64,000 nt of DNA, taken from Xylanimonas allomyrinae (GTDB taxonomy: Bacteria; Actinomycetota; Actinomycetes; Actinomycetales; Cellulomonadaceae). Position numbers and translations under genes: made by a program. The notes under the pieces were generated by a model. The model was given only the letters and a program-made list of their open reading frames with translations. It searched no databases and was not told the origin of the DNA. Positions 14,745 to 55,745 of the stretch are shown here, one piece after another (the first letter of the stretch is position 1; each line of letters starts with the position of its first letter). The DNA lies in the NCBI RefSeq assembly GCF_004135345.1, contig NZ_CP035495.1, forward strand, positions 1,178,001 through 1,242,000, read 5' to 3'.

Positions 14745-14749
14745 ACCGA

Positions 14750-15613
14750 TCAACGGGCGCCGTCGAGCGACTGCCGCGCGACAAGCAGCGCCGGTGCCGC
14801 CTTGATGACCCGCGGCGGATCGCCGCGCAGGACGTCCGCGAGCGCCCGCCCCGCGACCTCGCCCAGGGCCTGCACGTCGTGGCTCACCGCACTCAGCGGA
14901 GGGTCGGCGAGCTGGCACAGCGCCGAGTCGTCCCAGGCGACCAGCGAGAGCTGGTCCGGGACGCGCAGGCCGAGGCGGGCAGCCTCCTGGAGCGCGCCGA
15001 GGGCCATGACGTCGTTGTCGAAGACGAGGGCGGTCGGGCGGTCCGGCTGCCCGGCGAGCGCCGAGACGGCCCGCACGCCGGACGCCTCCGAGTAGTCGCC
15101 GTCGAAGCTCGACGTGCGCAGGCCGAGCTCGTGTGCGGCCTCGACGAACGTCTGGCGCCGGATGATCGTGTGGGCCATCTGCGTCGGACCCGTGACGTGA
15201 CCGATGTGCGTGTGCCCGTACCGCGCCAGCGACCCGACGACGTCCCGCATCGCGACGTCGTCCTGGGTCCACACGCAGGGCAGGCCGTCGGCCGTCCGCG
15301 GGTCACCGATGACGACCGCCGGCAGGCCCAGGCTCGTCACCAGCCCGACGCGCTCGTCCCCCGGAACCAGGTCGATCAGCACGACACCCTGAACCTGGCG
15401 GCCCGCGCTCCACCGCCGGATCCGCTGCGCGGACTCGGCGACGGACGCCACGACCTGCATCCGCACCGACACCCCTTGCGGCACCAGGACGCGTTCCATC
15501 CCGGCGATCAGCTCGTGGAAGAACGGCTCCGCGCCCAGGACCTCGGCATCACGGACCAGCGCCAGCCCGACCGGCTTCCCCCGCACCAGGCTCCGCGTCG
15601 ACGTCGTCGCCAT
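14750..15613 (-). CDS. LacI-type effector-binding protein lacking the HTH domain
   Basis: A 287-residue protein made only of the periplasmic-binding-protein-like sensor domain of LacI regulators. It opens directly with GKPVGLALVRDAEVLGAEPFF, and the C-terminal lobe has PTALVFDNDVMALGALQEA and SLVAWDDSALCQLADPPLS. No helix-turn-helix precedes it: an in-frame TGA lies 27 bases upstream of ATG 15613 and the divergent ROK gene begins within 80 bp, leaving no room for a missing domain. AAGGAG sits 6 bp before the ATG. It may sense sugar and act through a partner such as the ROK protein. Confidence 0.85.
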   Translation of the reverse strand: MATTSTRSLVRGKPVGLALVRDAEVLGAEPFFHELIAGMERVLVPQGVSVRMQVVASVAESAQRIRRWSAGRQVQGVVLIDLVPGDERVGLVTSLGLPAVVIGDPRTADGLPCVWTQDDVAMRDVVGSLARYGHTHIGHVTGPTQMAHTIIRRQTFVEAAHELGLRTSSFDGDYSEASGVRAVSALAGQPDRPTALVFDNDVMALGALQEAARLGLRVPDQLSLVAWDDSALCQLADPPLSAVSHDVQALGEVAGRALADVLRGDPPRVIKAAPALLVARQSLDGAR

Positions 15614-39391: not shown

Positions 39392-39960
39392 ATGTCAACA
39401 CCGACCGACCTCACCTCGTCGCGGCTCTCACCGCTGCGTCGTGCCGCCGCCGCGCCGTCGCTGCCGGAGGCCGCGACCTCGCTGGCGCGGGCCGGGGTGC
39501 CGGTGTTTCCGTGCGCGCCGACGGGTAAGCAGCCGCTGACGCAGCGCGTGTTCCTGGACGCGACCACCGACGTCGACCAGGTCGCGGCGTGGTGGCGGCG
39601 TCGTCCGGACGCGAACATCGGCGTGCCGACCGGTGAGCGGTCGGGGTTCGACGTCGTCGATGTGGACCTGCACCCGGGTTCGTCGGGGTTCCCGGCGTTC
39701 GAGCGGGCCCGCCGCGGCGGCCTGGTGGCGGGGTGGTCGGTGGTGGTGCGCACGCCCTCGGGCGGGATCCACGCCTACTTCCCGCACTCTGCGGGGGTTG
39801 AACAGCGGTCGTGGCAGTCGCCGCGCACGCACGTCGACTTCCGCGGGGACGGCGGGTATGAGGCAGCCAGCGCGTCGAGCCGCATCGCCTGGCACACCGA
39901 CCCACCCATCACCCACGGCGTCGACCACGGGCCGACGGCGACGATCACCCCCATGCGCCC
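39392..39960 (+). pseudogene. Bifunctional DNA primase/polymerase (prim-pol), truncated
   Basis: From ATG 39392 about 190 residues of a prim-pol domain: GVPVFPCAPTGKQPLTQRVF, the metal-binding pair in GFDVVDVDLHPG, SGGIHAYF with the conserved His, and THVDFRGDGGYEAASASS. After about 39955 the frame stays open but reads as Arg/Pro-rich nonsense, because the DNA there codes the next gene in another frame. The C-terminal region is lost. It would have initiated replication of a plasmid-like mobile element. Confidence 0.8.
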
Positions 39961-40001
39961 TACCGACCGGAGGTCACGGCGGACGCGACGGGGCCCATGC
40001 C

Positions 40002-41951
40002 GTGACCGAGGACCGCGTCCACGCCTCCGTGCTCGTGACCCCTGCCGGAGAACGCCGTGGCCGGCGACGAGCCCGCCGGGCCGCAGCCGACGCCGTCGCA
40101 GCCCGCAGCCTCGCCGAGACGCGGGCCGCGGCGCGCACCACTCACGCGGCCGACCTGGCCGCCCGACGCGCGACCCGCTACCTGCCCGCAGCCGGCGAAC
40201 CCGGACCCGCCGCGCTGCGCACCCCGGGCCGCTTGCGCCTGCCGCAGCACCAAGACACCTCCGCCACGTGGGCGGGCGCGTACCCGTTCCTCGCCGAGGG
40301 CGGCCTCGGCGCCGACGGCGTGTTCATCGGACAAGACCACAACTCCGGGTCCGCGTTCGTCTACGACCCCTGGGTCCTCTACCAGCGCGGCCTGATCACC
40401 GCCCCGAACATGGTCATCGCGGGCATCGTCGGCGCCGGGAAGTCTGCCCTCGCCAAGTCCCTGTGCACCCGCTCGCTCCCGTTCGGACGCCGCGTCTACG
40501 TCCCCGGCGACCCCAAGGGCGAGCACACGGTCGTCGCCCGCGCCGTCGGCGGCATCGCCATCGAGCTCGGCCACGGTTCCCCGAACCGCCTCAACCCCCT
40601 CGACGAAGGCCCCCGCCCCACCGGCCTCGACGACGACCAGTGGCGCATTCAGGTGGCCGCCCGCCGCCGCGACCTCGTGGGAGCCCTGACCGAGACCGTC
40701 CTCGAACGACGCCTGACCCCGCTCGAGCACACCGCCCTCGACGTCGCGCTCACCGACACCGTCGCCGCCGCGACCGTCCCGATCCTGCCCATGGTCGTCG
40801 ACCGGCTCCTGACCCCCGACGACACCACCCTCACCGAAGACGGGCGCCTCGCCGGACACGCCCTGCGCCGCCTCGTGGCCGGCGACCTCGCCGGCATGTT
40901 CGATGGCCCCTCCACCGTCCGCTTCGACCCCACCGCCCCGATGGTCACCCTCGACCTGTCCGCCGTCGCCGAGAACACCACCGCCCTGTCCCTGCTCATG
41001 ACGTGCGCGTCAGCCTGGATGGAGTCCGCGCTCCTCGACCCCGACGGCGGCCAACGGTGGGTCCTGTACGACGAGGCCTGGCGGCTCATGGCCCACCCCG
41101 CCCTCCTGCGCCGCATGGACGCCCACTGGCGGCTCGCCCGCCACTACGGCATCGCGAACGTCCTCGTCTTCCACAAGCTCTCCGACCTCGACAACGTCGG
41201 CGACCACGGCTCCACGGCACGCGCCCTCGCGTCCTCACTTCTCGCCAACGCCGAGACCCGCGTCATCTACCGCCAGGAGACCGACCAGCTCGGCCCCACC
41301 GCGACCACGCTCGGACTCACCCGAACCGAGCGCGGACTCCTGCCCGAACTCGCGCGCGGGCAAGCACTCTGGCGAATCCGCGACAGATCCTTCCTCGTCA
41401 CCCACCAGATGGTCCCCGACGAGCTCGCACTCTTCGGCACAGATGCACGCCTCGACGTCCAGACCGGTGACGCTTCATCTCTGCCCTACCTGACCACGAA
41501 GCCCCTCCCACTTGAGGACCGGGTCCCACCGCGAGCGGACAACGCCGAGGGCTCGCGGCCAGGGGGAGCGCGGCGGCAGGGAAGGCTTCACGCGTTTCAC
41601 CCGGTCTCTCGATGGCCTGGGCTCGACCGCGGGCTGTGCTGGACGCACCCGAGGTGTCTCTTCACTGCGTCTATAGCCTGCACGTCGAGTGAGATCGTGA
41701 GGATGTCCAGATTCGCGTCCAGCTTCGTGACCTTCGCGACTCAACGCGTGGTCAGCAATGCCGATTCTGGACACCCTCACCCATCTGCTCGAACACCCCA
41801 CCGGCGTGCCGTGACGCCACCGCGAGAATGGGACCCGTTGGAGTCACTCGCTGCGGTCCCTTATGCCGAGATCGCCCGGTCTGAGCGCACCCGGACCAGT
41901 TCTTTGGCGACCTCGAGCAGCCGCACTCCGGCGGTTGACGGCACGCCATAG
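40002..41951 (+). CDS. VirB4-like conjugation ATPase, 5' fused and 3' readthrough
   Basis: A 649-residue frame. Residues about 10-490 are a conjugative-transfer ATPase of the type found with SCO6880: Walker A AGIVGAGKSALAKSL, VYVPGDPKGEH, Walker B-like RWVLYDEAWRLMAHPALLRR, and LAREL-type C-terminal strand ARGQALWRIRDRSFLVTHQM. Homology fades at about 41465 (ALFGTDARLDV); the remaining ~160 residues to 41951 look like readthrough into unrelated DNA. GTG 40002 is an arbitrary start; the natural N-terminus was probably lost at the prim-pol junction. Confidence 0.7.
   Translation: MTEDRVHASVLVTPAGERRGRRRARRAAADAVAARSLAETRAAARTTHAADLAARRATRYLPAAGEPGPAALRTPGRLRLPQHQDTSATWAGAYPFLAEGGLGADGVFIGQDHNSGSAFVYDPWVLYQRGLITAPNMVIAGIVGAGKSALAKSLCTRSLPFGRRVYVPGDPKGEHTVVARAVGGIAIELGHGSPNRLNPLDEGPRPTGLDDDQWRIQVAARRRDLVGALTETVLERRLTPLEHTALDVALTDTVAAATVPILPMVVDRLLTPDDTTLTEDGRLAGHALRRLVAGDLAGMFDGPSTVRFDPTAPMVTLDLSAVAENTTALSLLMTCASAWMESALLDPDGGQRWVLYDEAWRLMAHPALLRRMDAHWRLARHYGIANVLVFHKLSDLDNVGDHGSTARALASSLLANAETRVIYRQETDQLGPTATTLGLTRTERGLLPELARGQALWRIRDRSFLVTHQMVPDELALFGTDARLDVQTGDASSLPYLTTKPLPLEDRVPPRADNAEGSRPGGARRQGRLHAFHPVSRWPGLDRGLCWTHPRCLFTASIACTSSEIVRMSRFASSFVTFATQRVVSNADSGHPHPSARTPHRRAVTPPREWDPLESLAAVPYAEIARSERTRTSSLATSSSRTPAVDGTP
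41470..41860. other. Stretch without recognisable gene
   Basis: Between the end of VirB4 homology and the ARH operon I see no gene with normal codon use on either strand, and no RNA or clear repeat. It is the border between the conjugation remnants and the riboside operon. Confidence 0.4.
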
Positions 41952-42924
41952 CCGCGCAGAGTCTCAACCCGCTCGCGCCAGGCGGGCGGAATCGCCTCGA
42001 CACCCGCTACCGCGCCGAGGAGCGATCCGACCATCGCCGGCATGGTGTCGGCTTGCTTGGGCATCAGGTTCGCGACACCGATCGCCTCGGCGAAGGAAGC
42101 CGACTCGCGCGCGATGATCAGGGCGAGCGGGAGCGTCTCCGCCGCGATGTTCCCGAAGTTGTACTCCAGGTTCGCGACCTGGTCGTTCCAGTCGGGGATC
42201 GCGTCGATCAGCGACTCGCTCTCTCGCAGGATCGACTCGGCGAGCGCGAGCTTGCGTCCCAGCCAGGAGTCGCCGTCGATCGCGGCGATGGCTCGGGCGA
42301 CCGCTTCAGCCGTCGAGCCGCCGGAGGTCGCGACGGCGATGGCCGAGGCGAAGGCCGCCGCCGCGTCCACGCCGACGCCGTCGTTCGTGACCGACGCGAG
42401 CCGGCGTGCGACTCGGGCGGCCTGGTCGGGCGTTCCGCTGTAGACGATGCCGACCGGCACGGCTCTGGCGACGGATGAGTCGTCGTAGAAGTGCGGGTTG
42501 TCGGTTCCGGTCGCCGGTGGCGTCAAGCCCTCGACGGCGTTGCGGATCGCGGAGCGGTCGGCGACCGAACCCCACAGACCGTCGGCCTGTGGCAGGACGA
42601 TGGACCGCCATGCCTCAAAGATGTCGGCGATCTGCGGCTCACCGGAGCTGGCACCGATGGCCTGGAGCAGTACCGCGGCGGCGAGCGCGGCCTGCTCTGC
42701 ATCGTCGGTCGCCGAGAAGGTCGCCCTGTCGAGCGGGGCCGAGAGCGTGAAGGGCAGGGGAACTTGGAGACCCGGTGCTTGTCGAGCTCGCGCGCCTGCG
42801 TCCACAGCAAGTCGCGACGCCACCCGGTGGCAACCGTCTGGTGATACCGAGCGGGGAAGCCCGAGGCGTCGCCAGCGGCGAGGCCGAGCAGGGCGCCGTG
42901 CGCGTGGGTCAGGGGTTCAAGCAT
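41861..42924 (-). pseudogene. ADP-ribosylglycohydrolase family protein, single-base frameshift
   Basis: From ATG 42924 (8-bp overlap with the upstream ARH gene) the N-terminus reads THAHGALLGLAAGDASGFPA and WTQARELDKHRVSK. Near 42762 the frame is lost; one more C in AAGTTCCCCTG gives VSKFPLPFTLSAPLD and continues to 41861, about 354 residues in all. Metal motifs are partly degenerate: SATDDAEQAALAAA matches the first, but the second is KQADTMPAMVGSLLG instead of DADT. It is the last gene of the riboside operon. Confidence 0.78.
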
Positions 42925-43918
42925 GCTTCGTGGCCCTTCTTGTCTCGACGGCGTCAGAGATCCGGTCTGCCAGGTCTCCCAGGTCCACACCCGCCATCGC
43001 CGCGACGCAGCTACCGCGCAGCGGACCCAGACGGCGAGTCCACTCTCCAGGGATGGCGTCGACGCCGTGGAGCGCCCCGGCGAGCGCCCCAGCCATTGCT
43101 GCAATGGTGTCGGCGTCACGCCCGATGTTGACTCCCCCCAGCACCGAGTCGACGTACCCGCCCTCGGCGACGGCGAAGACACCCAGTGCCAGTGCGGTCG
43201 CCTCGGGAGCGGTGTCTGCCCAGGGGTAGTGGGACAGGGAGATCCGGCGCTCAAGCTCGTCGAGCCGCTCCTCGTCGGAACCAGAACCCTGAGCGATGTC
43301 GACCGCACGCACGAGCATCCTCCGCGACCACGAGTCCGCGGGGGTCGCGGCGACGGCCGCCTCGACGACCTGCGACCAGCCGTCCGCCTCGATGGCGACC
43401 GCGGTGGCTGCGGCGATCGCTTGCCCGCACCAGATGCCATCGCGCGCGTGGCTGACCGCCGCATCGACCGCCGCCAGGCGCGCGGCGAGCCCAGGGTCGC
43501 CGGCCGCGTACGCACCGATGGGCGCGACGCGCATCGCCGAGCCGTCGCTCCACTGCTCATGGCCGTCGGTTCCCGAGGCCGGGGGCCGCAGCCCTCGCTC
43601 CAGGTTATGGATGGCTTCCATCTCGGAGAACCCTCCGCCGTCGAACGGTGTGGCTTGGTCGACGAGTGCGTCGTGCCACTCGCGTGCGACGTCGGCGCTG
43701 GTCAGGTCGGTGCCGTACTTCAGCAGTGTTAGCGCTGTCAGGGCCGCGTACTCGGTGTCGTCGGTGCCGGCGGGGTCGGCGGCGAGGAAGCCACTGACGC
43801 GCCCCCAACGCTCCCGAATCTGGGCGCGCGTCATGCCTTCCGTGGGCGCACCGAGGGCGTCGCCGATGGCCTGGCCGATGACGGCGCCATGGATGCGCTT
43901 GCGAAGAGGGGGCGTCAC
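42917..43918 (-). CDS. ADP-ribosylglycohydrolase (ARH/DraG) family protein
   Basis: A 333-residue all-helical hydrolase with the dinuclear Mg site intact: GAVIGQAIGDALGAPTEGMT at the N-terminus, ADPAGTDDTEYAALTALTLL, and GGVNIGRDADTIAAMAGALA near the C-terminus. GTG 43918 overlaps the kinase stop (GTGA). The family cleaves ADP-ribose or other N-/O-ribosides. Its place between a ribokinase-like gene and a second ARH gene, behind a sugar importer, suggests catabolic hydrolysis of an imported riboside rather than protein de-ADP-ribosylation. Confidence 0.88.
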   Translation of the reverse strand: MTPPLRKRIHGAVIGQAIGDALGAPTEGMTRAQIRERWGRVSGFLAADPAGTDDTEYAALTALTLLKYGTDLTSADVAREWHDALVDQATPFDGGGFSEMEAIHNLERGLRPPASGTDGHEQWSDGSAMRVAPIGAYAAGDPGLAARLAAVDAAVSHARDGIWCGQAIAAATAVAIEADGWSQVVEAAVAATPADSWSRRMLVRAVDIAQGSGSDEERLDELERRISLSHYPWADTAPEATALALGVFAVAEGGYVDSVLGGVNIGRDADTIAAMAGALAGALHGVDAIPGEWTRRLGPLRGSCVAAMAGVDLGDLADRISDAVETRRATKHA

Positions 43919-44823
43919 AGGGGCATTCCTTTCTCAGTGGTCGGCGCCGCGTGGCATGGCGCGGCCATCGCGGCGTCGACGTCAGCCCGTGTCGGGATGG
44001 ACGGCACGGCGCCGTGGGACTCGACGGACAGGGATGCGGCGATCGCCGCCCGCCGTGCCGCGGCCTCATACCCGGCGCCAGCGGCGACGTCGGCGGCGAA
44101 GACGCCGACGAAGGTGTCGCCGGCGCCGGTTGTGTCCACAGCCACCGTCGGACGCGCCTCGATCCGCACCGGCGCAGACCCCCGGACGTCCAGCTCGGCA
44201 CCTGCCGCACCCATCGTCGTCAGGACGCATCGCACGCGCAGGTCGCGGACGCCCAGGTGCTGCGCCTCGTGCTCGTTGACGACGAGCACGTCGACGTCCG
44301 CGAGGACGACCGCGGGCACGGTGCGCACCGGCGCGGGGTTCAGCACCACCCGCGTTCCGCTCGCGCGGGCGACCGCGATCGCCTGGTGCACCACGCTGTC
44401 GGGAACCTCGAGCTGGCAGACCAGCACGTCGGCCGCCGCGATGAGCGCCCGGTCGCCGTCCGTCAGGCCGCGCAGGGCGTCGTTCGCCCCGGCCACGATG
44501 ACGATGTTGTTCTCGCCCGACGCCTCGGTCGTGACGAAGGCGGTCCCGGTCGGACCCTCCTGGCGGCGCACGGCGCTGTCGTCAATCCCCTCGGCGCGGA
44601 TCACTTGGGCGAGGGTCTCCCCGTGCTCGTCGGCGCCCAGCGCGGCGACGAAGACGGTGGCGGCGCCTGCACGACGCGCCGCGATAGCTTGGTTGAGCCC
44701 CTTTCCGCCAGGAAAGGCGGTGAGCGACTCCGCCGTCACGGTCTCCCCCGGTCGGGGGATGCGCGCGACACGGGTGACGACATCCATATTCGCGCTCCCT
44801 ACGACCACCACCCGGCCGCTCAT
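43915..44823 (-). CDS. Ribokinase-like PfkB kinase
   Basis: A 302-residue kinase with the N-terminal VVVVGSANMDVVTRVARIPR, the sugar-binding GGKGLNQAIAARRAG (Asn-Gln), and the catalytic TTGAGDTFVGVFAADVA. NPAPVRTVP matches the ribokinase family. It should phosphorylate ribose or a related pentose from ATP. It is coupled by ATGA to the permease gene upstream and by GTGA to the ARH gene downstream, which places it in the riboside pathway. Confidence 0.87.
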   Translation of the reverse strand: MSGRVVVVGSANMDVVTRVARIPRPGETVTAESLTAFPGGKGLNQAIAARRAGAATVFVAALGADEHGETLAQVIRAEGIDDSAVRRQEGPTGTAFVTTEASGENNIVIVAGANDALRGLTDGDRALIAAADVLVCQLEVPDSVVHQAIAVARASGTRVVLNPAPVRTVPAVVLADVDVLVVNEHEAQHLGVRDLRVRCVLTTMGAAGAELDVRGSAPVRIEARPTVAVDTTGAGDTFVGVFAADVAAGAGYEAAARRAAIAASLSVESHGAVPSIPTRADVDAAMAAPCHAAPTTEKGMPL

Positions 44824-45743
44824 CCCTTGACTCCCGAGGAGGCCAGGCCGCTGATGAAGCGGCGTTGCATGAACAGGAAGAGTCCGATGACGGGCAGGAC
44901 CATGACGAGACCGGCGGCGTTCTGGATGCCGTAGAGCCTGGTGAAACCCTGCTGGAACTGCAGGAACGCGGCCGAGATCGGCCAGTTGTCCGGCGAGGCC
45001 ATGAAGATCACCGCGAAGAAGAGCTCACCGTAGACCGCGAGCCCCACCACGAGGCCGGCGGTGAGGAATCCCGGGCGGGCCAGCGGCAGCATGACCTTGG
45101 TGGCGACCTGCCACTCGTTGGCGCCGTCAAGGCGGGCCGCCTCGTCGAGCTCCTTGGGGATCCCCACCAGGAAGGTCTCCAGAAGCAGGGTCGCGAATGG
45201 CGTGTTGAGCGCGACGTAGATGAGGACTAGGCCGAACAGGTTGTCGTACAGGCCCAGGCGCGTCCAGAGGAAGAACAGCGGGACGAGGAACATCTGGGCG
45301 GGTAGGGAGATGCAGACCAGCAGGTACGTCGAGATGCCACGCTTGAACGGCACGTTCAGACGCGCCAACGAGTACGCCGCCATCCCCGCGCAGACCCACA
45401 CCCCGACGACCGTGCCCGCGACCAGCACGGCGCTGTTGCGCAGGCCTTGGCCCAGTCGGCCAAGCGACCACGCGGTGGCGAGGTTGGACAGTTCCCAGGT
45501 GGACGGGAACCCCAGCGGGTTGGTGGCCAGCTCCGTGTCTGACTTGAACGCGTTGAAGACGAGGACCAGCACCGGCAGGATCGCGAAGAGCGCGAGCACG
45601 ACCAGGAGCGTGAACGAGATCGGGGTCCGCCTCAGTCCGCCCGCCCGCTCGGCGACGCCCCCGTCGTGATCGGCGCGGCGTCGCCGACGTCGGCGACGCC
45701 CGGGGGCCGCCACGACCCCGGGTCCGGTCGTAATCGCGGTCAT
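44820..45743 (-). CDS. Carbohydrate ABC transporter permease, MalG type
   Basis: A 307-residue permease with an arginine-rich cytoplasmic start (GRRRRRRRRADHDGG), six TM segments and the EAA loop DEAARLDGANEWQVATKVMLPL. ATG 45743 overlaps the MalF-type stop and the stop overlaps the kinase start. It imports the substrate bound by the lipoprotein at 46681-48108. No ATPase is encoded in the operon. Confidence 0.9.
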   Translation of the reverse strand: MTAITTGPGVVAAPGRRRRRRRRADHDGGVAERAGGLRRTPISFTLLVVLALFAILPVLVLVFNAFKSDTELATNPLGFPSTWELSNLATAWSLGRLGQGLRNSAVLVAGTVVGVWVCAGMAAYSLARLNVPFKRGISTYLLVCISLPAQMFLVPLFFLWTRLGLYDNLFGLVLIYVALNTPFATLLLETFLVGIPKELDEAARLDGANEWQVATKVMLPLARPGFLTAGLVVGLAVYGELFFAVIFMASPDNWPISAAFLQFQQGFTRLYGIQNAAGLVMVLPVIGLFLFMQRRFISGLASSGVKG

Positions 45744-46684
45744 GACTGATCCTCCTTGCGGCGTAGCAGGCCGATGATGACGAGCAGGACTCCGCCTAGC
45801 GCCGACATCGTCAGGCCCATGAAGGCGGCGTAGCCGGCCTCGTTCGCCCCGAACGCCGTCCGGTTGACCAGCAGCGAGACGAGGTCGCTGGCCCCCGCGG
45901 GTCCGCCGCCGGTCAGGGCGTAGGCGTAGTCGAACGCAAGCAGCGACCACAGCGAGATGATGGTCAGCGCGAAGACCAGGGTCGGGCGGATGCCCGGCAG
46001 CGTGACGTGCCAGAACTCCTGCCAGGCGTTGGCCCCATCAATGCGAGCCGCCTCGTAGCGGGCGTTGTCAATATTGGTCATGGCGGCGAGGAACAGCACG
46101 ACGAGGAAGCCCCAGAAGTGCCAGTTGTCGACAAACATCACGCTGCCGAGGGCGAGCCTCGTGTCACCGAAGAAATAGACGTCGTCGAGCCAGTGGACGC
46201 CGACCTGGTTGAGCGCCGCGGCCAGCCCGGCCTGCGGGTCGAGAATGTTCTTCCAGATCGCGGCGTTGACGACGCTCGCGATCAGATACGGGATGAAGAA
46301 CAGGACGCGGAACAGCGCCGCGCCACGGCGAATGCGCGACAGAGCGAACGCGCCGAACAGGCCCATGCAGATCGGGACCGAGAGGAAGAACGCCATGTAG
46401 ATCGCGTTGTGGCGCAGCGCGTTCCAGAACGCCTGGTCGTGGGCCAGCCGCACCGCGTTGTCCCAGCCGGTGAATGTCGCCGGACCGAAGCCGGTCCAGT
46501 CGGTGAAGGCGTAGTACAGGTTGGAGATCGACGGGCCGCCGACCACCAAAAGGTTCACCGCCAACGCCGGAGAGAGGAACAGGAGCGCGACGACGGTGCC
46601 GCGCCGTTGGCTCCGACCGCGGGCGCGACTGCGCGCCTCGCCCGCGGTCGCGGGGATGGAGCGTGCCGTCATAACCGTGCTCAT
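45740..46684 (-). CDS. Carbohydrate ABC transporter permease, MalF type
   Basis: A 314-residue permease; six TM segments, with FLSPALAVNLLVVGGPSISN at the first and the EAA loop YEAARIDGANAWQEFWHVTL. Coupled by ATGA to both neighbours. Pairs with the MalG-type protein to form the membrane pore of the importer. Confidence 0.91.
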   Translation of the reverse strand: MSTVMTARSIPATAGEARSRARGRSQRRGTVVALLFLSPALAVNLLVVGGPSISNLYYAFTDWTGFGPATFTGWDNAVRLAHDQAFWNALRHNAIYMAFFLSVPICMGLFGAFALSRIRRGAALFRVLFFIPYLIASVVNAAIWKNILDPQAGLAAALNQVGVHWLDDVYFFGDTRLALGSVMFVDNWHFWGFLVVLFLAAMTNIDNARYEAARIDGANAWQEFWHVTLPGIRPTLVFALTIISLWSLLAFDYAYALTGGGPAGASDLVSLLVNRTAFGANEAGYAAFMGLTMSALGGVLLVIIGLLRRKEDQS

Positions 46685-48108
46685 CGCGCGGCGGGTTTCC
46701 CGGTCGAGAAGACCGCGGGCACGTTGCCACGCCGCAGGTCCTCCTGGAACGCGGCGTCAAGGCCCTGGAGGAACGTCTCGGTGGTCATCACGTCGCTGAG
46801 CACCTTGTCGGTGTTGTCGACGATGAACTGGTTGGACTGCGCGCCCCACGACGTCCAGGTGGTGTAGCCCACGAGCCCGGCCTCGCTCGCCTCGGAGAGC
46901 GAGGTGTACACGCGGGCAAAGCGAGGGTCGACCTCGGACGGGATGTCGGCGTCGTCGATCGTCACCGGCATCGGGTTGGCGCCGGTCGCCGCGACCTGTG
47001 CCCACATCGTCTCGGAGTCCTTGAGGATCCAGTCGAGGTAAGTCTGGGCGGCCAGGGGGTTCTTGGTGTTCGCGTTGACGGAAAGCGCCCCACCGACCGA
47101 CAGCGGGAAGGTCGTCGGGACGCCATCGGCCAAGGGCGGCACCGGCGCCCAGTCGAACTCGGCGCCGGACTGGTCGAAGAACTCCGGCAGCGTGACGAAC
47201 TCCCACGTCCCAGAGATGTACATGCCGGCCTCACCGCTGGCGAACTGGGCGTACTTCACCGGGTCCGTGGTCGCGAAGTACTGGCGGACGCCGCCACCGA
47301 ACCACCCGGCGTCGAAGTACTCCTTGAGCAGGTCGATGGTCTGAGCGAAAGCGGGGTCGGTCCACGGAACAGTCCCGGAGAGAGCGTCGTGCACCTTCTC
47401 GGCGCCTGCGACGGAGTTGAGGAGCGCGCTCACCAGCCACTCGGTCCCGGCGGGGTAGTCAGAGTTGCCCGCGGCGAACGGCGTGACACCCGCCGCCGTC
47501 ATCTGGGCGGCCAGGCGCTCCAGTTCCTGCCGGTTGGTCGGCGGGACCCAGCCGTGCTCGGCAAAGAGCGTCTTGTTGTAGAACAGCACGAGCGTCTCGT
47601 ACGACTGGGGCAGCGTCACGAGCTTGCCGTCGGCGGTGGCGATCTCTTGCGCCCACGGGAGCAGATGATCACTCCACGCGTTCTCAGCGGCGAACGGGGT
47701 GAGGTCGTGAAGGAACCCGGCCTGGGCGTACGCGATCTGGTTCGTGACGCCGGGCGCGATGATCAGGTCAGGGCCCGTGCCCGCTGCAAGCGCCACCTGC
47801 AGTTGCCGGTCAAGGACGTTGAGGCCCTTCTGCACCGTCTGCAGGTCGACATCGGGGTGCAGCGCGACGAACGGGTCGACGTTGAAGCGCTTCCAGTCGG
47901 CCACTCCTTGGGCGTCAGGGGTGAACGGGGCGAACCAGTACGTCAGTGTGCCGCTCGGCTCCCCGGTCAGGTTCGCTGCCGGCGCCGGGGCGTCGTTGGA
48001 GCACGCGGTAGGGGCGAGGGCGGCCAAGGCCGCGACCGCACCGACGGCGAGCCTGCGGCGGCGGGCGCTGGCACGTCGACCAGGGCGCAGCGGGATGTGG
48101 TGCTTCAT
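46681..48108 (-). CDS. Extracellular solute-binding lipoprotein of the riboside operon
   Basis: A 475-residue family-1 binding protein. After an Arg-rich start, a hydrophobic segment ends in the lipobox APTAC (lipidated Cys near residue 36). The mature domain has TLTYWFAPFTPDAQ, GTGPDLIIAPG and ISGTWEFVTLPEFF, typical of carbohydrate-binding proteins. ATG 48108 was preferred to GTG 48117 because GAAGGAG is spaced eight bases from it. Its ligand is unknown; the downstream hydrolases suggest a ribosylated compound. Confidence 0.9.
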   Translation of the reverse strand: MKHHIPLRPGRRASARRRRLAVGAVAALAALAPTACSNDAPAPAANLTGEPSGTLTYWFAPFTPDAQGVADWKRFNVDPFVALHPDVDLQTVQKGLNVLDRQLQVALAAGTGPDLIIAPGVTNQIAYAQAGFLHDLTPFAAENAWSDHLLPWAQEIATADGKLVTLPQSYETLVLFYNKTLFAEHGWVPPTNRQELERLAAQMTAAGVTPFAAGNSDYPAGTEWLVSALLNSVAGAEKVHDALSGTVPWTDPAFAQTIDLLKEYFDAGWFGGGVRQYFATTDPVKYAQFASGEAGMYISGTWEFVTLPEFFDQSGAEFDWAPVPPLADGVPTTFPLSVGGALSVNANTKNPLAAQTYLDWILKDSETMWAQVAATGANPMPVTIDDADIPSEVDPRFARVYTSLSEASEAGLVGYTTWTSWGAQSNQFIVDNTDKVLSDVMTTETFLQGLDAAFQEDLRRGNVPAVFSTGKPAAR

Positions 48109-48134
48109 CGTGTTCACTCCTTCGTGATCAGTGG

Positions 48135-49499
48135 TCAGCTCAGGCCGTCGATGGCCAGGCGGGTGGTGCGCTCGGCGAGGTTGGAGATGCGCGAGTTGTC
48201 GAACCCGAAGAGCGCGGACCTGGTGCGGTCGGCGAGGGGGACGACGAGGTTGTCAGGCAGACCCGCGACGCCGGTCAGGATGCCGAGGACGGAGCCGACG
48301 GTCGCGCCGTTGGAGTCGGTGTCCCAGCCACTCATCACGATGCGACCGACCCCTGTGGTGAAGTCGTCGTCGGACCACAGCAGCGCGACGGCGACCGCTG
48401 CGGCGTTGTTGATCGTGTGAACCCACGAGTAGTGCCCGTACGCCCCCTGGACTGCGGCGAGCGCCTCCTCCCAGGTGACGTCCGCCTCTCGCAACGCCAG
48501 GACGTGGCGCAGGGCCTCGGCGAGCCGGGACTGCGGCGGGACGACGGCGATGGACTCGGTCACCGCCTCCCGCGCCGACGACGCCGAGAACGCGGCCGCG
48601 ACGAGCGCGGCGGCCCACATCTCGCCGTAGATGCCGTTGCCCACGTGCGAGAGCGAGGCGTCCTGGAAGGCGAGCCGGGCGGCGGCCCAGGGGTCGCCGG
48701 CGTGGACGTAGCCGAAGACGTCGCCGCGGATCTGCGCGCCGATCCACTCGCGGTGTGGGTTGCGCCGCCGCGCGACCTGCGGCGGGGCCAGCCCTTCGAT
48801 GAGGTTGACGTACGCCGCGCGCTCGGCGGTGAAGACCTGCTCGATTGGGAACAGCCGGGTCCATGCGGCGCCGACGTCCTGCGGGCGCAAGGCGGCGCCG
48901 TGGGTCTCCAGAAGGTGCAGGGCGAGGATCGCGTAGTCAATGTCGTCGTCGCGCGCTCCCCCGTCGACATTGCCTCGGGTGGTCTGCGGCCAGCAGTCGG
49001 TCAGGACGAAGCCGTCGGGCATCGGGTCGAGCCGGGGCACGTAGTCGCGCAGCGGGTAGGCGTCGGCCAGGACGAGGTAGTCGCGGATGTGGTCCGAGGT
49101 CCAGTGGAACCCCCATTCGACCGGCTTGCCCACATTGCAGCCGACGATCCGCCCGAGCCAGGCCGCGTGGATCTGGTCGCGCAGTCGCACCTCAGGGATG
49201 GCGCCGGCGCGAGGCTTGGCCACCAGCGACGCCTCGATCTGCACGATCTCGTCGGGCTCGTCGTAGGCCCAGCCTGCGAGGCGGGGGGCGGTGGCCATGC
49301 GGTCGACGATCGCAAGGACCGCGTCACGGTCGGTCGGGTCGGTCGCGTTCGCCTCGGCGACGAACGCGTCGACGTCGTAGCCGGTCTCACGGCGCTGGAC
49401 GACCTCGTCGTGCAACAGCTCGTGCGGCAAGAGCGGGTTGAAGAAGTCCGACCTGTAGGCCGGGCTGAGGGCAAGATCGAGGGCCTTGGTGTCAGTCAC
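48135..49499 (-). CDS. Large ADP-ribosylglycohydrolase family protein
   Basis: A 454-residue ARH-family hydrolase, longer than the usual ~300 because of an N-terminal extension of about 140 residues. The ARH core begins RLRDQIHAAWLGRIVGCNVG; metal motifs are GNVDGGARDDDIDYAILALH and MSGWDTDSNGATVGSVLGIL, both intact. GTG 49499 is preceded by GAAGGG at a rather long spacing and lies 32 bp after the LacI gene. It is the first enzyme gene of the operon, so probably the main hydrolase. Confidence 0.87.
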   Translation of the reverse strand: MTDTKALDLALSPAYRSDFFNPLLPHELLHDEVVQRRETGYDVDAFVAEANATDPTDRDAVLAIVDRMATAPRLAGWAYDEPDEIVQIEASLVAKPRAGAIPEVRLRDQIHAAWLGRIVGCNVGKPVEWGFHWTSDHIRDYLVLADAYPLRDYVPRLDPMPDGFVLTDCWPQTTRGNVDGGARDDDIDYAILALHLLETHGAALRPQDVGAAWTRLFPIEQVFTAERAAYVNLIEGLAPPQVARRRNPHREWIGAQIRGDVFGYVHAGDPWAAARLAFQDASLSHVGNGIYGEMWAAALVAAAFSASSAREAVTESIAVVPPQSRLAEALRHVLALREADVTWEEALAAVQGAYGHYSWVHTINNAAAVAVALLWSDDDFTTGVGRIVMSGWDTDSNGATVGSVLGILTGVAGLPDNLVVPLADRTRSALFGFDNSRISNLAERTTRLAIDGLS

Positions 49500-49531
49500 T
49501 GCGGGTGGTTCCCTTCGGGTGGTGGACGTGG

Positions 49532-50551
49532 TCAGGCTGAGCCGCGCACGACAAGGTGAGTCGCCAGCGCATACCGGTCGAACGGTCGTGCCGGGTGCTC
49601 GATGCGGCGGATCAGCGCGTCGGCGCAGGCGTAGCCGATGAGCGTGGCGGGGTTGATGACGGTGGTGAGCCGTGGGCTGAGCAGCTTGGACGTCGGGATG
49701 TCGTCGAAGCCGACGATCGCGATGTCTTCCGGGATGGCGAGATCTGCGTCGCGCGCCGCCTCGATGGCCCCGATCGCGATCTGGTCGTTGGCACACATCA
49801 CGGCGGCAGGGCGGTCGGCGCGCGCGAACAGGCGCTCCGCGGCGGCGAAGCCGCCGTCGATGGTGTAGCCGGTGGCGTGCTCGACCCACGCCTCAACGAC
49901 GGGGGCGCCATGGTCCGCCATCGCGGCGCGGAAGTGGGCGAGCCGGTTGCTACCGGGAACGGTCGCGTCCGGTCCGCTCAGGAAGCCAATCGCACGCCTC
50001 CCACGGTCGAGCAGGTGGGCGACGGCCTCGCGCACCCCCGTCTCGTCATCGGTGCTGACCTCGTCGGCGAGGATCCGGCGGGGGGAGCCGTCGGGGCCTT
50101 CGGGCGGCTCCCCGGTCAGCAACACGAGCGGGATCGTCGGACCCAGCACGCTGCGGATGCGCTCGGCGGAGAGCGACATCGTGCTCATGATGACGCCGTC
50201 GACGCTGCGCGAGCGCATCTCCTCCAGAACACGGACCTCGGTCAGCGGATCACCGTCCGTGTTGCCGATGAACGAGACGTAGCCGTGCGAGCCGACCCGG
50301 TCATGGATCGCGCGCGCGACCGCGGGGTAATAGGGGTTGGCGATGTCCGCGACCAAGAGCGCGATCGTCCTCGTCTCCTGCCGTCGCAGACCCCGTGCGA
50401 TGAGGTTGGGGTGATAGTCGAGCTCCTCCGCGACGCGGAAGACACGCTGCCGTGTGCTCTCGGCGACCGGGCGCGTGCCCGACAGCGCGTTGGACGCCGT
50501 CGCGACGCTCACACCCGCACGTCGCGCGACTTCTTTGAGGCCGACCTCCAC
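49532..50551 (-). CDS. LacI family transcriptional repressor
   Basis: A 339-residue regulator with the complete HTH: GLKEVARRAGVSVATASNAL then VFRVAEELDYHPNLIARGLR, and a sugar-sensing domain (VADIANPYYPAVARAIHDRV, CANDQIAIGAIEAARDADLA, VGFDDIPTSKLLSPRLTTV). GTG 50551 was chosen because AAGGGAG lies seven bases upstream. It heads the operon, so it represses itself and all eight genes from the operators just upstream until the imported sugar or a product binds. Confidence 0.93.
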   Translation of the reverse strand: MEVGLKEVARRAGVSVATASNALSGTRPVAESTRQRVFRVAEELDYHPNLIARGLRRQETRTIALLVADIANPYYPAVARAIHDRVGSHGYVSFIGNTDGDPLTEVRVLEEMRSRSVDGVIMSTMSLSAERIRSVLGPTIPLVLLTGEPPEGPDGSPRRILADEVSTDDETGVREAVAHLLDRGRRAIGFLSGPDATVPGSNRLAHFRAAMADHGAPVVEAWVEHATGYTIDGGFAAAERLFARADRPAAVMCANDQIAIGAIEAARDADLAIPEDIAIVGFDDIPTSKLLSPRLTTVINPATLIGYACADALIRRIEHPARPFDRYALATHLVVRGSA

Positions 50552-50571
50552 AGCGAACTCCCTTGTCTCAA

Positions 50572-50601
50572 AACGAACCAAATCGTTCTATATAAAACGA
50601 T
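50572..50601. promoter_or_regulatory. Overlapping LacI-type operators and AT-rich promoter
   Basis: Two overlapping inverted repeats: AACGA-N6-TCGTT (50572-50587) and ATCGTT-N8-AACGAT (50582-50601). They lie 20-50 bp upstream of the LacI GTG in an AT-rich stretch unusual for this DNA, with TATATA on the minus strand as a possible -10. They are the probable autoregulatory site for the riboside operon. Confidence 0.65.
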
Positions 50602-50713
50602 CTAACTCCTTGGGCGCGCACATAATGGGGTAGGTGCGAGGCCGTGTCAACACCTCGCGACGACGTTGGCGCCGCCAATGAGGGGTGGCGCTCCGGGTCG
50701 TCCAAGGCGAGCC

Positions 50714-50924
50714 ATGGTCCCCGTCCCTGAACAGACCGGCCGCCCGTGGCGCCGGTCACGGGCGCGAGCGGGCACCGGCCGTGAAGCGGCCATCCGACTC
50801 GCCGGAGCGGGTTCCCACCACATCCTCGCGGTGCGCGACCAGGCCCTGGATTGTGATCGGCACACGGTCGAGGTGACCGGCCCGCTGGACATCCCGGTCA
50901 ACTGTGCCGGCTGGGTGCCCCCCC
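50714..50924 (+). pseudogene. Short-chain dehydrogenase (SDR), 5' fragment
   Basis: The fragment reads GTGREAAIRLAGAGSHHILA then LDIPVNCAGWVPP, matching the Rossmann TGxxxGxG region and the NAG strand of SDR enzymes. The expected VAPVTGAS just before it lies in a second frame, so it also has a frameshift near 50750. The gene is split at 50924 by the IS110 array; the 3' part is at 55487. Confidence 0.7.
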
Positions 50925-51202
50925 ATTACTTCCTAGCGGGTCCTGCGAGGCTCCGGTTCTTGACCGGGTTGCCGCGTGAGGATGCGCGTGGTGGCCGCCG
51001 GGCCCGGCATGATTGCTGCCCCCTGTCGCGAGACATGATCTGGGGGGTGTTGTCACCGGGCTCGGCTGGCAGGTCGTCATCGCTGATAGGGGCAAGGCTA
51101 GAGGGGCGCGTCGGCGCCGCTCAGGTCGCTCGTAATGTGGATGCCGAGACGTCCTGCCGGTCGACCACCGCCTCGTGTCGGTTCGGCTGGGAGGATGCAC
51201 AG
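50925..51202 (+). ncRNA. Candidate bridge-RNA region in IS110 left end
   Basis: The 278-bp non-coding left end of the unit, repeated at 52446-52723 and 53967-54243, has several short inverted repeats (for example CCGCCGGGCCCGGC near 50996, GGTGTTGTCACC at 51046-51057). In IS110-group elements the guide (bridge) RNA is encoded in the long non-coding end upstream of the recombinase, so this is where it should be. No transcript or fold has been shown; this is position-based inference. Confidence 0.35.
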
Positions 51203-52420
51203 GTGGTCTCGCAGATCGTCGGGTACGACGACATCGCGGTCTTCATCGGCCTGGACGTCGGCAAGGGTGAGCACCACGCCGTCGCCCTCGACAAGGCCGG
51301 CGAGAGGCTGTTCGACAAGCCGTTGCCGAACTCCGAGGCGAGGCTGCGGGCGCTGCTCGAGCCGCTCATGGACCGCGGCCGGGTCCTCCTCGTGGTGGAC
51401 CAGCCGGCCACGATCGGCGCGCTGCCCGTCGCGGTCGCCCAAGCCCAGGGTGTGACCGTCGGCTACCTGCCGGGCCTGACGATGAGGCGTGTGGCGGACC
51501 TGCACCCCGGAGAGGCGAAGACCGACGCCCGCGACGCGCTGATCATCGCGGAGACGGCCCGCACGATGCCGCACACTCTGCGCAGCGTCGACCTCGGCGA
51601 CGAGCAGGTCGCCGAGCTGACGATGCTGTGCGGCTTCGACGACGACCTGACCGGCGAGATCACGAGAGTGACCAACCGGATCCGCGGGCTGCTCACCCAG
51701 ATCCACCCCGCCCTCGAACGAGCGGTCGGCCCGCACCTGGACCACCCCGCGATGGTCGACCTCCTGGCCCGCTGGGGCACACCCGCCGCGCTCCAGAAGG
51801 CCGGCAAGAGGCAGGTCGCCGACCGTCTGCGCAAGCGCGCCCCCAGGGCTGGGGCGCGGTGGGCCGAGACGGTCTTCACCGCCCTGGGCGAGCAGACCGT
51901 CGTCGTGGCGGGCACGGACGCGGCCGGGGCCGTCATCCCCCGCCTGGCCAAGCAGCTCGAGCTGCTGCGCGCACAACGTGACGACGTCGCCGAACAGGTC
52001 GAGGCCCTCGTGGAGGCCCACCCTCTTTCCCCAGTCCTGACCTCGATGCCAGCAGTCGGAGTCAGGACAGCGGCCCGCTTGCTGACCGAGGTCGTCGGCA
52101 AGACCTTCCCCACCGCCGGGCACCTGGCCGCCTACGCCGGCCTTGCCCCCGTGACCTGGCGCTCTGGGTCATCGATCCGCGGCGAGCACACCTCCCGGCG
52201 CGGCAACAAGATCCTCAAACGCGCCCTGTTCCTCTCCGCCTTCGCCGCCCTCCGCGACCCCAGGTCCCGGGCCTACTACGACCGCAAACGCGCCCAAGGC
52301 AAGACCCACACCCAAGCCCTACTCGCCCTCGCCCGCCGACGCTGCGACGTCCTGTTCGCCATGCTCCGCGACGGCGCCTTCTACGACCCGCCCACAGCCA
52401 CCCGACCCGCCGCCGCTTGA
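51203..52420 (+). CDS. IS110-family transposase, copy 1
   Basis: A 405-residue DEDD recombinase: FIGLDVGKGEHHAVALDKAG, LLVVDQPATIGALPVAVAQA, EAKTDARDALIIAETARTMP and the C-terminal MPAVGVRTAARLLTEVVGKT with YAGLAPVTWRSGSSIRGEHT (catalytic Ser region). GTG 51203 was chosen for the GGGAGG eight bases upstream; the frame is open further upstream but codes only the non-coding end. Intact, probably active. Confidence 0.93.
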   Translation: MVSQIVGYDDIAVFIGLDVGKGEHHAVALDKAGERLFDKPLPNSEARLRALLEPLMDRGRVLLVVDQPATIGALPVAVAQAQGVTVGYLPGLTMRRVADLHPGEAKTDARDALIIAETARTMPHTLRSVDLGDEQVAELTMLCGFDDDLTGEITRVTNRIRGLLTQIHPALERAVGPHLDHPAMVDLLARWGTPAALQKAGKRQVADRLRKRAPRAGARWAETVFTALGEQTVVVAGTDAAGAVIPRLAKQLELLRAQRDDVAEQVEALVEAHPLSPVLTSMPAVGVRTAARLLTEVVGKTFPTAGHLAAYAGLAPVTWRSGSSIRGEHTSRRGNKILKRALFLSAFAALRDPRSRAYYDRKRAQGKTHTQALLALARRRCDVLFAMLRDGAFYDPPTATRPAAA

Positions 52421-52445
52421 CACCCGAAGGAGATAGGGGCACCCC

Positions 52446-53966
52446 ATTACTTCCTAGCGGGTCCTGCGAGGCTCCGGTTCTTGACCGGGTTGCCGCGTGA
52501 GGATGCGCGTGGTGGCCGCCGGGCCCGGCATGATTGCTGCCCCCTGTCGCGAGACATGATCTGGGGGGTGTTGTCACCGGGCTCGGCTGGCAGGTCGTCA
52601 TCGCTGATAGGGGCAAGGCTAGAGGGGCGCGTCGGCGCCGCTCAGGTCGCTCGTAATGTGGATGCCGAGACGTCCTGCCGGTCGACCACCGCCTCGTGTC
52701 GGTTCGGCTGGGAGGATGCACAGGTGGTCTCGCAGATCGTCGGGTACGACGACATCGCGGTCTTCATCGGCCTGGACGTCGGCAAGGGCGAGCACCACGC
52801 CGTCGCCCTCGACAAGGCCGGCGAGAGGCTGTTCGACAAGCCGTTGCCGAACTCCGAGGCGAGGCTGCGGGCGCTGCTCGAGCCGCTCATGGACCGCGGC
52901 CGGGTCCTCCTCGTGGTGGACCAGCCGGCCACGATCGGCGCGCTGCCCGTCGCGGTCGCCCAAGCCCAGGGTGTGACCGTCGGCTACCTGCCGGGCCTGA
53001 CGATGAGGCGTGTGGCGGACCTGCACCCCGGAGAGGCGAAGACCGACGCCCGCGACGCGCTGATCATCGCGGAGACGGCCCGCACGATGCCGCACACTCT
53101 GCGCAGCGTCGACCTCGGCGACGAGCAGGTCGCCGAGCTGACGATGCTGTGCGGCTTCGACGACGACCTGACCGGCGAGATCACGAGAGTGACCAACCGG
53201 ATCCGCGGGCTGCTCACCCAGATCCACCCCGCCCTCGAACGAGCGGTCGGCCCGCACCTGGACCACCCCGCGATGGTCGACCTCCTGGCCCGCTGGGGCA
53301 CACCCGCCGCGCTCCAGAAGGCCGGCAAGAGGCAGGTCGCCGACCGTCTGCGCAAGCGCGCCCCCAGGGCTGGGGCGCGGTGGGCCGAGACGGTCTTCAC
53401 CGCCCTGGGCGAGCAGACCGTCGTCGTGGCGGGCACGGACGCGGCCGGGGCCGTCATCCCCCGCCTGGCCAAGCAGCTCGAGCTGCTGCGCGCACAACGT
53501 GACGACGTCGCCGAACAGGTCGAGGCCCTCGTGGAGGCCCACCCTCTTTCCCCAGTCCTGACCTCGATGCCAGCAGTCGGAGTCAGGACAGCGGCCCGCT
53601 TGCTGACCGAGGTCGTCGGCAAGACCTTCCCCACCGCCGGGCACCTGGCCGCCTACGCCGGCCTTGCCCCCGTGACCTGGCGCTCTGGGTCATCGATCCG
53701 CGGCGAGCACACCTCCCGGCGCGGCAACAAGATCCTCAAACGCGCCCTGTTCCTCTCCGCCTTCGCCGCCCTCCGCGACCCCAGGTCCCGGGCCTACTAC
53801 GACCGCAAACGCGCCCAAGGCAAGACCCACACCCAAGCCCTACTCGCCCTCGCCCGCCGACGCTGCGACGTCCTGTTCGCCATGCTCCGCGACGGCGCCT
53901 TCTACGACCCGCCCACAGCCACCCGACCCGCCGCCGCTTGACACCCGAAGGAGATAGGGGCACCCC
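52446..53966 (+). mobile_element. IS110-family element, tandem copy 2
   Basis: 1,521 bp, joined directly to copy 1 with no target DNA between them. The junction places the right end of copy 1 (GGAGATAGGGGCACCCC) next to the left end of copy 2 (ATTACTTCC), the arrangement also present in a circular IS110 intermediate. Confidence 0.9.
52724..53941 (+). CDS. IS110-family transposase, copy 2
   Basis: 405 residues, same protein as copy 1; the only nucleotide difference seen in the gene is C instead of T at 52789 (silent). All DEDD and serine-region motifs are kept. Confidence 0.93.
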   Translation: MVSQIVGYDDIAVFIGLDVGKGEHHAVALDKAGERLFDKPLPNSEARLRALLEPLMDRGRVLLVVDQPATIGALPVAVAQAQGVTVGYLPGLTMRRVADLHPGEAKTDARDALIIAETARTMPHTLRSVDLGDEQVAELTMLCGFDDDLTGEITRVTNRIRGLLTQIHPALERAVGPHLDHPAMVDLLARWGTPAALQKAGKRQVADRLRKRAPRAGARWAETVFTALGEQTVVVAGTDAAGAVIPRLAKQLELLRAQRDDVAEQVEALVEAHPLSPVLTSMPAVGVRTAARLLTEVVGKTFPTAGHLAAYAGLAPVTWRSGSSIRGEHTSRRGNKILKRALFLSAFAALRDPRSRAYYDRKRAQGKTHTQALLALARRRCDVLFAMLRDGAFYDPPTATRPAAA

Positions 53967-55486: not shown

Positions 55487-55745
55487 CGGCAGCGTGCTGC
55501 ACGTTACGCCGTCCGAGTGGCAGGCCGCCTTCGACCAGAACGTGACGTCGACGTACTGGACGATTCGGGCCGTGCTTCCCGCCATGCTCACCCGCACACC
55601 GGAAGAGATCGCTGCGGCCGCGGTCTGGCTCGCCGGTGACGAGTCAGCCTTCGTCACCGGGACAGAGGTGGTGCTCGACGGCGGGCAGTCGCTGCAGCCC
55701 CCGCGCCAGCACCACCGAGGGGTCAAGCCCCGCGGAGTGGTGTAG
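55487..55745 (+). pseudogene. Short-chain dehydrogenase (SDR), 3' fragment
   Basis: Continues the SDR split at 50924: GSVLHVTPSEWQAAFDQNVT then TYWTIRAVLPAMLTRTP, and the C-terminal AAAAVWLAGDESAFVTGTEV with VLDGGQSL. Joining the two flanks restores VNCAGWVPPGSVLHV. Between PAML and TPEEI the central part with the catalytic YxxxK is deleted, so the gene was already dead or was deleted later. The IS256 element starts inside its 3' end at 55721. Confidence 0.75.

What the first reader, a model, noticed from the sequence alone, without database searches (positions are those of the whole stretch)
41861..50601. Eight-gene operon with three ADP-ribosylglycohydrolase paralogues, a sugar importer and a ribokinase
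LacI repressor, ARH, binding protein, two permeases, ribokinase-like kinase, ARH and ARH run on one strand with gaps of 32 bp or less and mostly 4-base overlaps. ARH enzymes are best known for reversing ADP-ribosylation, but here the context is carbohydrate catabolism. The simplest model is import of a ribosylated compound, metal-dependent hydrolysis by three ARH variants and phosphorylation of the freed sugar. The three ARHs differ in length and metal motifs, suggesting division of labour.
Basis: partly seen in the sequence, partly recalled or inferred. Interest (0 to 1): 0.75.

Follow-up and report, generated by a model that had tools for sequence, protein, structure and literature searches.

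The report
Riboside-catabolism operon built on ARH hydrolases
A bacterium carries a sugar-uptake operon in which enzymes best known for removing ADP-ribose tags sit beside a ribose kinase, as related ones do in many other bacteria, suggesting that this part of the enzyme family digests imported ribose compounds for food.

Summary
On the minus strand lie LacI, ARH1, binding protein, two CUT1 permeases, PfkB kinase, ARH2 and ARH3, with gaps of at most 32 bp, four 4-bp overlaps, and one candidate promoter and operator upstream. ARH3 is frame-interrupted in this assembly; it is intact in Diaminobutyricibacter, which has the same eight genes in the same order.

The context looks catabolic. Of 49 sampled ARH1-clade places, 27 have CUT1 permeases nearby, 21 a PfkB kinase and 25 LacI; of 37 generic ARHs, 2, 0 and 1. 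Of 30 kinases near such ARHs, 29 keep all seven ribose contacts of E. coli ribokinase. The ARHs form orthologous groups (ARH1 to ARH4). Streptomyces-type loci carry ARH2-ARH3-ARH4-ARH1, six of nine with the kinase (SCO2028-2031, recalled): genes filed in print under de-ADP-ribosylation, of which two were inactive on ADP-ribosyl-uracil.

ARH3 follows ARH2 in 15 of 15 loci, yet 10 of 10 copies examined lack a metal-motif aspartate: probably a pseudoenzyme partner, not a third hydrolase.

Best reading: import of a riboside, hydrolysis by ARH1 and ARH2, phosphorylation of ribose. The substrate is unknown; nothing was assayed.

The parts
50622..50650 (-). promoter-like site TTGACA-17-CATTAT; similar sites upstream of LacI in L004 and L029
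50582..50601 (-). palindromic operator candidate (20 bp, 9 of 10 pairs), only match in the genome to the pattern used; a perfect 22-bp palindrome lies at the same place in L004
49532..50551 (-). LacI-family regulator, RbsR-like (best NCBIfam models RbsR, below cut-off)
48135..49499 (-). ARH1, 454 aa ADP_ribosyl_GH protein; motifs RDDDID and DTDS
46681..48117 (-). CUT1-type extracellular solute-binding protein (SBP_bac_1)
45740..46684 (-). ABC permease A (BPD_transp_1)
44820..45743 (-). ABC permease B (BPD_transp_1)
43915..44823 (-). PfkB kinase, ribokinase-like; all seven ribose contacts of E. coli RbsK conserved; only strong ribokinase-model match in the genome
42917..43918 (-). ARH2, 333 aa, DraG-like with both metal motifs (TDDTE, DADT)
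41861..42924 (-). ARH3, frame-interrupted; motifs TDDA and QADT, the second lacking the first Asp; intact in L004

Best explanation
This is a riboside-utilisation operon, probably horizontally acquired (inferred from its rarity in the order and the mobile genes beside it). A CUT1 ABC importer, its ATPase encoded elsewhere, takes up a ribose-containing glycoside. ARH1 and ARH2, metal-dependent hydrolases of the ADP-ribosylglycohydrolase fold, release D-ribose. The ribokinase-like kinase makes ribose 5-phosphate for the pentose phosphate pathway. LacI represses the operon from one palindrome downstream of the promoter until a pathway metabolite appears. ARH3 is most likely a non-catalytic partner of ARH2, and may be inactive in this strain. 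Shown by sequence: gene families, order, similar promoter and palindrome in L004, conserved ribose contacts, orthologous ARH groups, recurrent linkage. Inferred: direction of flux, ribose as product, metal use, inducer. Unknown: the aglycone.
For: Same eight-gene order in Diaminobutyricibacter. Linkage of the ARH1 clade with CUT1 permeases 27/49, binding protein 26/49, PfkB 21/49, LacI 25/49, against 2, 0, 0 and 1 of 37 generic ARHs. LacI, CUT1 parts, ARH and kinase together on plasmids of Mycolicibacterium and Deinococcus; CUT1 parts, ARH and kinase (no LacI recognised) in Subdoligranulum; LacI, CUT1 parts and two ARHs, without a kinase, in Nitratireductor and Phyllobacterium. 29 of 30 kinases within 6 kb of these ARHs keep all seven RbsK ribose contacts; E. 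coli PsuK, YeiI, YegV and FruK do not. The operon kinase is the only strong ribokinase-model hit in the genome, 239 bits, next 53. RbsR-like LacI. Independent pairings: ribokinase-ARH-nucleoside hydrolase-sugar transporter in Parabacteroides; ARH-nucleobase permease-ribokinase in staphylococci (PMC3637587, PMC3321955, passages); YegT (nucleoside-symporter family)-ARH-kinase in E. coli. SCO2028 and SCO2030 showed no activity on U-ADPr (PMC13036486, passages).
Against: No substrate known and no assay. The kinase is below the curated ribokinase cut-off (244.6 vs 299.65 bits), LacI below the RbsR cut-offs. CUT1 binding proteins usually take oligosaccharides (recalled). 22 of 49 ARH1-clade places have no CUT1 permease and 28 of 49 no PfkB within 6 kb on the same strand; one Streptomyces-type ARH1-like gene sits near a sirtuin and a glycerate kinase. 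The haloarchaeal L038 kinase and E. coli YegV lack ribokinase contacts. The permease, binding-protein and kinase profiles were built from operon loci and may under-detect unlike genes near generic ARHs.
Confidence: 0.6

Rival explanations
1. The ARHs are glycoside hydrolases for a non-ribose furanoside or a mixed oligosaccharide. The operon is sugar catabolism, but the freed sugar is another pentose or hexose that a ribokinase-like enzyme accepts.
For: CUT1 binding protein whose PDB relatives include chitin-oligosaccharide and maltose/acarbose binders; kinase and LacI below the equivalog cut-offs; 20 of 32 ARH1-clade places in the order have a second ARH subtype, as if two linkages were cut.
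Against: All seven ribose contacts conserved in 29 of 30 kinases; characterised ARHs act on ribosyl bonds (family knowledge, recalled).
Confidence: 0.22
2. The ARHs reverse ADP-ribosylation of proteins, nucleic acids or small molecules, and their place in a sugar operon is regulatory or accidental.
For: ARH2's best match among solved structures is DraG, and it keeps the same metal motifs; Streptomyces array genes are listed in print as putative ADP-ribosyl hydrolases (PMC9411070, PMC5087735, passages).
Against: Linkage with importer, LacI and ribokinase recurs in several phyla; no ADP-ribosyltransferase family among the eight operon genes; two ARHs of the Streptomyces array were inactive on U-ADPr, though other ADP-ribosyl linkages are not excluded by that.
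Confidence: 0.1
3. The operon salvages free ADP-ribose, NAD or poly(ADP-ribose) breakdown products from outside as a carbon source, with ARHs splitting ribosyl bonds.
For: Would reconcile the family's known chemistry with the importer and kinase; several ARH types would suit several ribosyl linkages. Inference only.
Against: No Nudix hydrolase or nucleotidase family among the eight operon genes; ribosyl-nucleotides are charged and need dephosphorylation first.
Confidence: 0.06

Closest known systems
E. coli yegTUV operon (YegT NHS-family MFS transporter, YegU ARH, YegV PfkB kinase)
   Same: transporter, ARH and PfkB kinase in one operon
   Different: one ARH, placed outside the clades found here (on a long branch); kinase lacks three of the seven RbsK ribose contacts; MFS in place of CUT1; function unknown, linked in print to glycogen (PMC10819704, passages)
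Streptomyces ARH array, taken as SCO2028-2031 (uncharacterised in print)
   Same: orthologues of ARH2, ARH3, ARH4 and ARH1 in a row in nine of nine loci, a ribokinase-like kinase after ARH1 recognised in six
   Different: no transporter or LacI recognised at these loci; a fourth ARH; treated in print as de-ADP-ribosylation enzymes
DraG, dinitrogenase reductase-activating glycohydrolase
   Same: ARH2 aligns over N- and C-terminal parts with both metal motifs
   Different: far below the DraG model cut-off (65 vs 337 bits); no nitrogenase gene in the operon
E. coli rbs operon (rbsDACBK, rbsR)
   Same: LacI-type regulator and kinase resemble RbsR and RbsK
   Different: the rbs importer takes free ribose (CUT2-type, recalled) and the operon has no hydrolase

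Membership tests
ADP_ribosyl_GH fold family (PF03747) | profile match above the gathering score | tested here: met
   155.0 (ARH1), 188.2 (ARH2) and 125.6 bits (ARH3, downstream piece) against 26.2
ADP_ribosyl_GH fold family (PF03747) | metal motifs (T/S)DD and DxD(T/S) | tested here: inconclusive
   DD and DxD kept in ARH1 and ARH2; ARH3 lacks the first Asp of the second motif
ADP-ribosylation-reversing hydrolase (DraG, Tri1) | curated equivalog score | tested here: not met
   ARH2 65 vs 337 (DraG), 43 vs 490 (Tri1); ARH1 (scanned as its longer 584-aa frame) no match
ADP-ribosylation-reversing hydrolase (DraG, Tri1) | activity on an ADP-ribosylated target | not testable with these tools
   no assay; SCO2028/2030 inactive on U-ADPr (PMC13036486)
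D-ribokinase (RbsK) | seven ribose contacts N14 D16 G42 K43 N46 E143 D255 | tested here: met
   NDGKNED in the window kinase; contacts named in PMC9604405
D-ribokinase (RbsK) | curated ribokinase score (TIGR02152) | tested here: not met
   244.6 vs 299.65 bits
CUT1 sugar importer | SBP_bac_1 binding protein and two BPD_transp_1 permeases | tested here: met
CUT1 sugar importer | dedicated or shared MsiK/UgpC ATPase | tested here: inconclusive
   none in the operon; UgpC-like ATPase elsewhere, 61% identity

The most novel reading that the evidence does not exclude
A previously undescribed, widespread catabolic branch of the ARH family: riboside-degrading operons with up to four ARH types, in which ARH2 and ARH3 form an obligate catalytic/pseudoenzyme pair. 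The Streptomyces SCO2028-2031 enzymes would belong to food metabolism, not to ADP-ribosylation signalling.
Probability: 0.4. Interest if true: 0.8.

Novelty: new variant of a known kind. Interest (0 to 1): 0.66.

Why it matters
ARH proteins are commonly annotated, and tested, as erasers of ADP-ribosylation. If the subfamilies in these operons are riboside hydrolases, many bacterial genes are misnamed, a ribose source of unknown chemistry remains to be found, and a pathway becomes directly testable in model Streptomyces. The ARH2-ARH3 pair would be a bacterial case of a conserved pseudoenzyme in this fold.

Tried and rejected
Structure prediction of ARH1 and of ARH3 from L004 gave poor models on two-row alignments (mean pLDDT 45.4 and 44.1), so no fold search was run. 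By sequence, ARH1 has no match among solved structures at E 0.001.

I first thought that ARHs in general sit beside PfkB kinases. Reading 39 regions around ARHs found in 60 Actinomycetota genomes showed this is not so: the link is confined to particular clades. Of the 47 places, I left out of the generic set three in the window, four of the G023 array and three of the ARH1 clade, which leaves 37. The Fisher values treat related genomes as independent and are only indicative. UgpC-type ATPases go the other way: 2 of 49 ARH1-clade and 5 of 37 generic places.

A first operator pattern missed even the window's own site and was loosened once. The L029 palindrome is no better than shuffles (223 of 1000). 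Salmonella STM3547 (PMC13432705, abstract and section 2.6) was considered; its neighbourhood as described there has no ARH. Passages on ARH genes in PMC10434189 and PMC10694973 told nothing of an ARH-kinase operon.

Ten paper searches were made, nine of them on ARHs. In their listings (20 of 141 papers shown, 40 of 63, every hit in the others) I saw no paper proposing a catabolic role for multi-ARH operons. The library holds open-licence papers only, so this is not proof of absence.
Full report
WHAT IS THERE. On the minus strand, from about 50650 down to 41861, one promoter-like site and one palindrome are followed by eight genes: LacI, ARH1, binding protein, permease A, permease B, PfkB kinase, ARH2 and ARH3. 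The gaps are 32 and 17 bp, four junctions overlap by 4 bp and ARH2/ARH3 by 8 bp. The genome (3.85 Mb, 99.99% complete) has no other ARH match at E 0.001. The palindrome is the only match in the genome to the pattern used, without mismatches, so the regulator may control this operon alone. Upstream of LacI in Diaminobutyricibacter (L004) lie a TTGACA promoter-like site and a perfect 22-bp palindrome (0 of 1000 single-base shuffles as good; 5 of 1000 for the window's own, 223 of 1000 for L029).

CORRECTION. ARH3 is not one reading frame in this assembly: the frame of the start codon matches the N-terminus of the intact L004 protein and the rest matches in another frame. Intact copies exist in L004 and L005. 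Whether this is a sequencing error or a real lesion cannot be told here. The operon has no ATPase gene; a UgpC-type ATPase elsewhere in the genome has 61% identity to the one in the related Mycolicibacterium operon.

SAME OPERON ELSEWHERE. L004 has the identical eight-gene order. Asanoa (L005) has LacI, binding protein and permeases divergent from ARH2-ARH3, with no ARH1 or kinase recognised in the 17 kb. The Mycolicibacterium plasmid (L029) has LacI-ARH1-binding protein-permeases-ribokinase-UgpC without ARH2/3. ARH3 is rare: 10 of 396 genomes drawn across the phylum (the own genome and nine of one genus, taken as Streptomyces from the gene neighbourhood) and 2 of 396 in the order. ARH1 relatives are commoner: 15 of 396 and 30 of 396 genomes. 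Of 32 ARH1-clade places in the order other than the window, 20 (L096-L115) show LacI-permease-permease-binding protein-ARH4-ARH1, 13 of these with a kinase (counted). Nonomuraea (L036) joins four ARHs to LacI, permeases and kinase, with a weak binding-protein match; L096 has all four ARH types behind an importer. The nine Streptomyces-type loci (L018-L026) carry ARH2-ARH3-ARH4-ARH1, with the kinase recognised in six. I identify this array with SCO2028-2031 from recalled gene order (gltB on one side, lgt on the other; neighbours read by eye) and from the papers' list of DraG-like genes.

PLASMIDS. ARH1 relatives were found in 32 plasmid records; I read ten regions. In the seven with annotation, a ribokinase lies beside the ARH in three (Mycolicibacterium, Deinococcus, Parabacteroides), both permeases and a binding protein in four (Mycolicibacterium, Deinococcus, Nitratireductor, Phyllobacterium), LacI and binding protein only in Enterobacter, and a UgpC ATPase next to the ARH in Agrobacterium. 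Of the three without annotation, Nonomuraea and Subdoligranulum show importer, kinase and ARHs, and the haloarchaeon Halostella (L038) shows no permease and an unlike kinase.

HOW SPECIFIC. Within 6 kb and on the same strand, ARH1-clade places have CUT1 permeases in 27 of 49, binding protein 26, PfkB 21, LacI 25, another ARH type 29; generic ARHs have 2, 0, 0, 1 and 0 of 37; UgpC 2 of 49 against 5 of 37. The 49 are every place except the window's own; the 37 come after the removals told under Tried and rejected. Genomes are related, so the counts are not independent; the profiles were built from operon loci and favour operon-like genes; some regions are short because contigs end.

PARTS. The tree (78 rows, quick method, SH-aLRT only, several long branches flagged) gives an ARH1-plus-large-ARH clade (100), an ARH4 clade (100), and ARH2 and ARH3 as sister clades (97 together; 93 and 100 alone). 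So ARH2 and ARH3 seem to have split before the window-type and Streptomyces-type loci did. All 15 loci with ARH3 have ARH2 just upstream on the same strand, and none of the loci annotated has ARH2 alone. Most of these loci were found through ARH3, but an ARH2 search of 286 genomes hit eight with ARH2, all of them also in the ARH3 list (a ninth hit, G212, is an ARH1-clade gene). The first Asp of the DxD(T/S) motif is kept by 15/15 ARH1, 6/6 large ARH, 7/7 ARH4, 9/9 ARH2 and 31/32 others, and lost in 9/9 ARH3 and in L096, which has lost the first metal motif too (read by eye); the five other Streptomyces ARH3 were not in the table. A conserved His is N or Q in the nine ARH3 but kept in L096. That these residues bind metal and substrate in DraG is recalled, not tested.

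KINASE AND REGULATOR. The kinase falls with E. coli RbsK (97) and keeps all seven contacts named in PMC9604405 (passages). 29 of 30 kinases near these ARHs do so; the exception is L038. In the own genome the next best match to the ribokinase model has 53 bits against 239. LacI scores best with RbsR models but below their cut-offs.

INDEPENDENT PAIRINGS. Parabacteroides: rbsK-ARH-nucleoside hydrolase-sugar transporter. Staphylococci: ARH-nucleobase permease-ribokinase (PMC3637587 and PMC3321955, passages). E. coli: yegTUV. Different transporters joined to ARH and kinase point to a riboside as the shared theme. E. coli YegU falls outside the clades found here and YegV lacks three of the ribose contacts, which weakens that example.

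MECHANISM. Import, ribosyl hydrolysis by ARH1 and ARH2, and ribose phosphorylation are inferred; no step is shown by assay. The aglycone is open. The frequent presence of two different ARH types suggests two linkages or two anomers.

AGAINST THIS READING. Kinase and regulator miss their curated cut-offs; 22 of 49 ARH1-clade places lack a nearby permease and 28 of 49 a kinase; at L118 an ARH1-like gene lies near a SIR2 gene and a glycerate kinase (L121 looks alike by eye), and L089 has an asparaginase-family gene nearby, so the clade may not have one function.

KNOWN WORK. SCO2028-2031 are called uncharacterised DraG/ARH homologues (PMC9411070, passage); SCO2028 and SCO2030 were purified and showed no activity on U-ADPr (PMC13036486, passages). 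I saw no paper on a catabolic role in the searches listed under Tried and rejected.

Noticed in passing
window 50666-55461: Three tandem IS110-family transposase genes, repeats 1520-1521 bp apart, lie just upstream of the operon promoter, followed by a short-chain dehydrogenase remnant (55458-55745); NCBIfam calls the first an RNA-guided IS110 transposase.
   Followed up: partly
window 39633-41951: VirB4/TraC-like conjugal transfer ATPase frame (below the curated cut-offs) converging on the operon's end from the other strand and overlapping it by 91 bp; with the IS110 array this suggests a mobile island.
   Followed up: partly
window 6732-15613: A second sugar operon with PfkB kinase, two permeases, binding protein and a weak LacI-like match.
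   Followed up: no
L089:11512-12516: Asparaginase_2 family gene, with permease-like genes after it, downstream of an ARH1-clade gene: a possible hint at N-glycosyl amino acid substrates.
   Followed up: no
L118:6675-10442: Streptomyces-type ARH1-like gene between a glycerate kinase and a SIR2 gene; sirtuins make O-acetyl-ADP-ribose (recalled), so this member may act differently.
   Followed up: no
L096:10150-11341: The most decayed ARH3, with both metal motifs gone by eye, still sits directly behind ARH2.
   Followed up: partly
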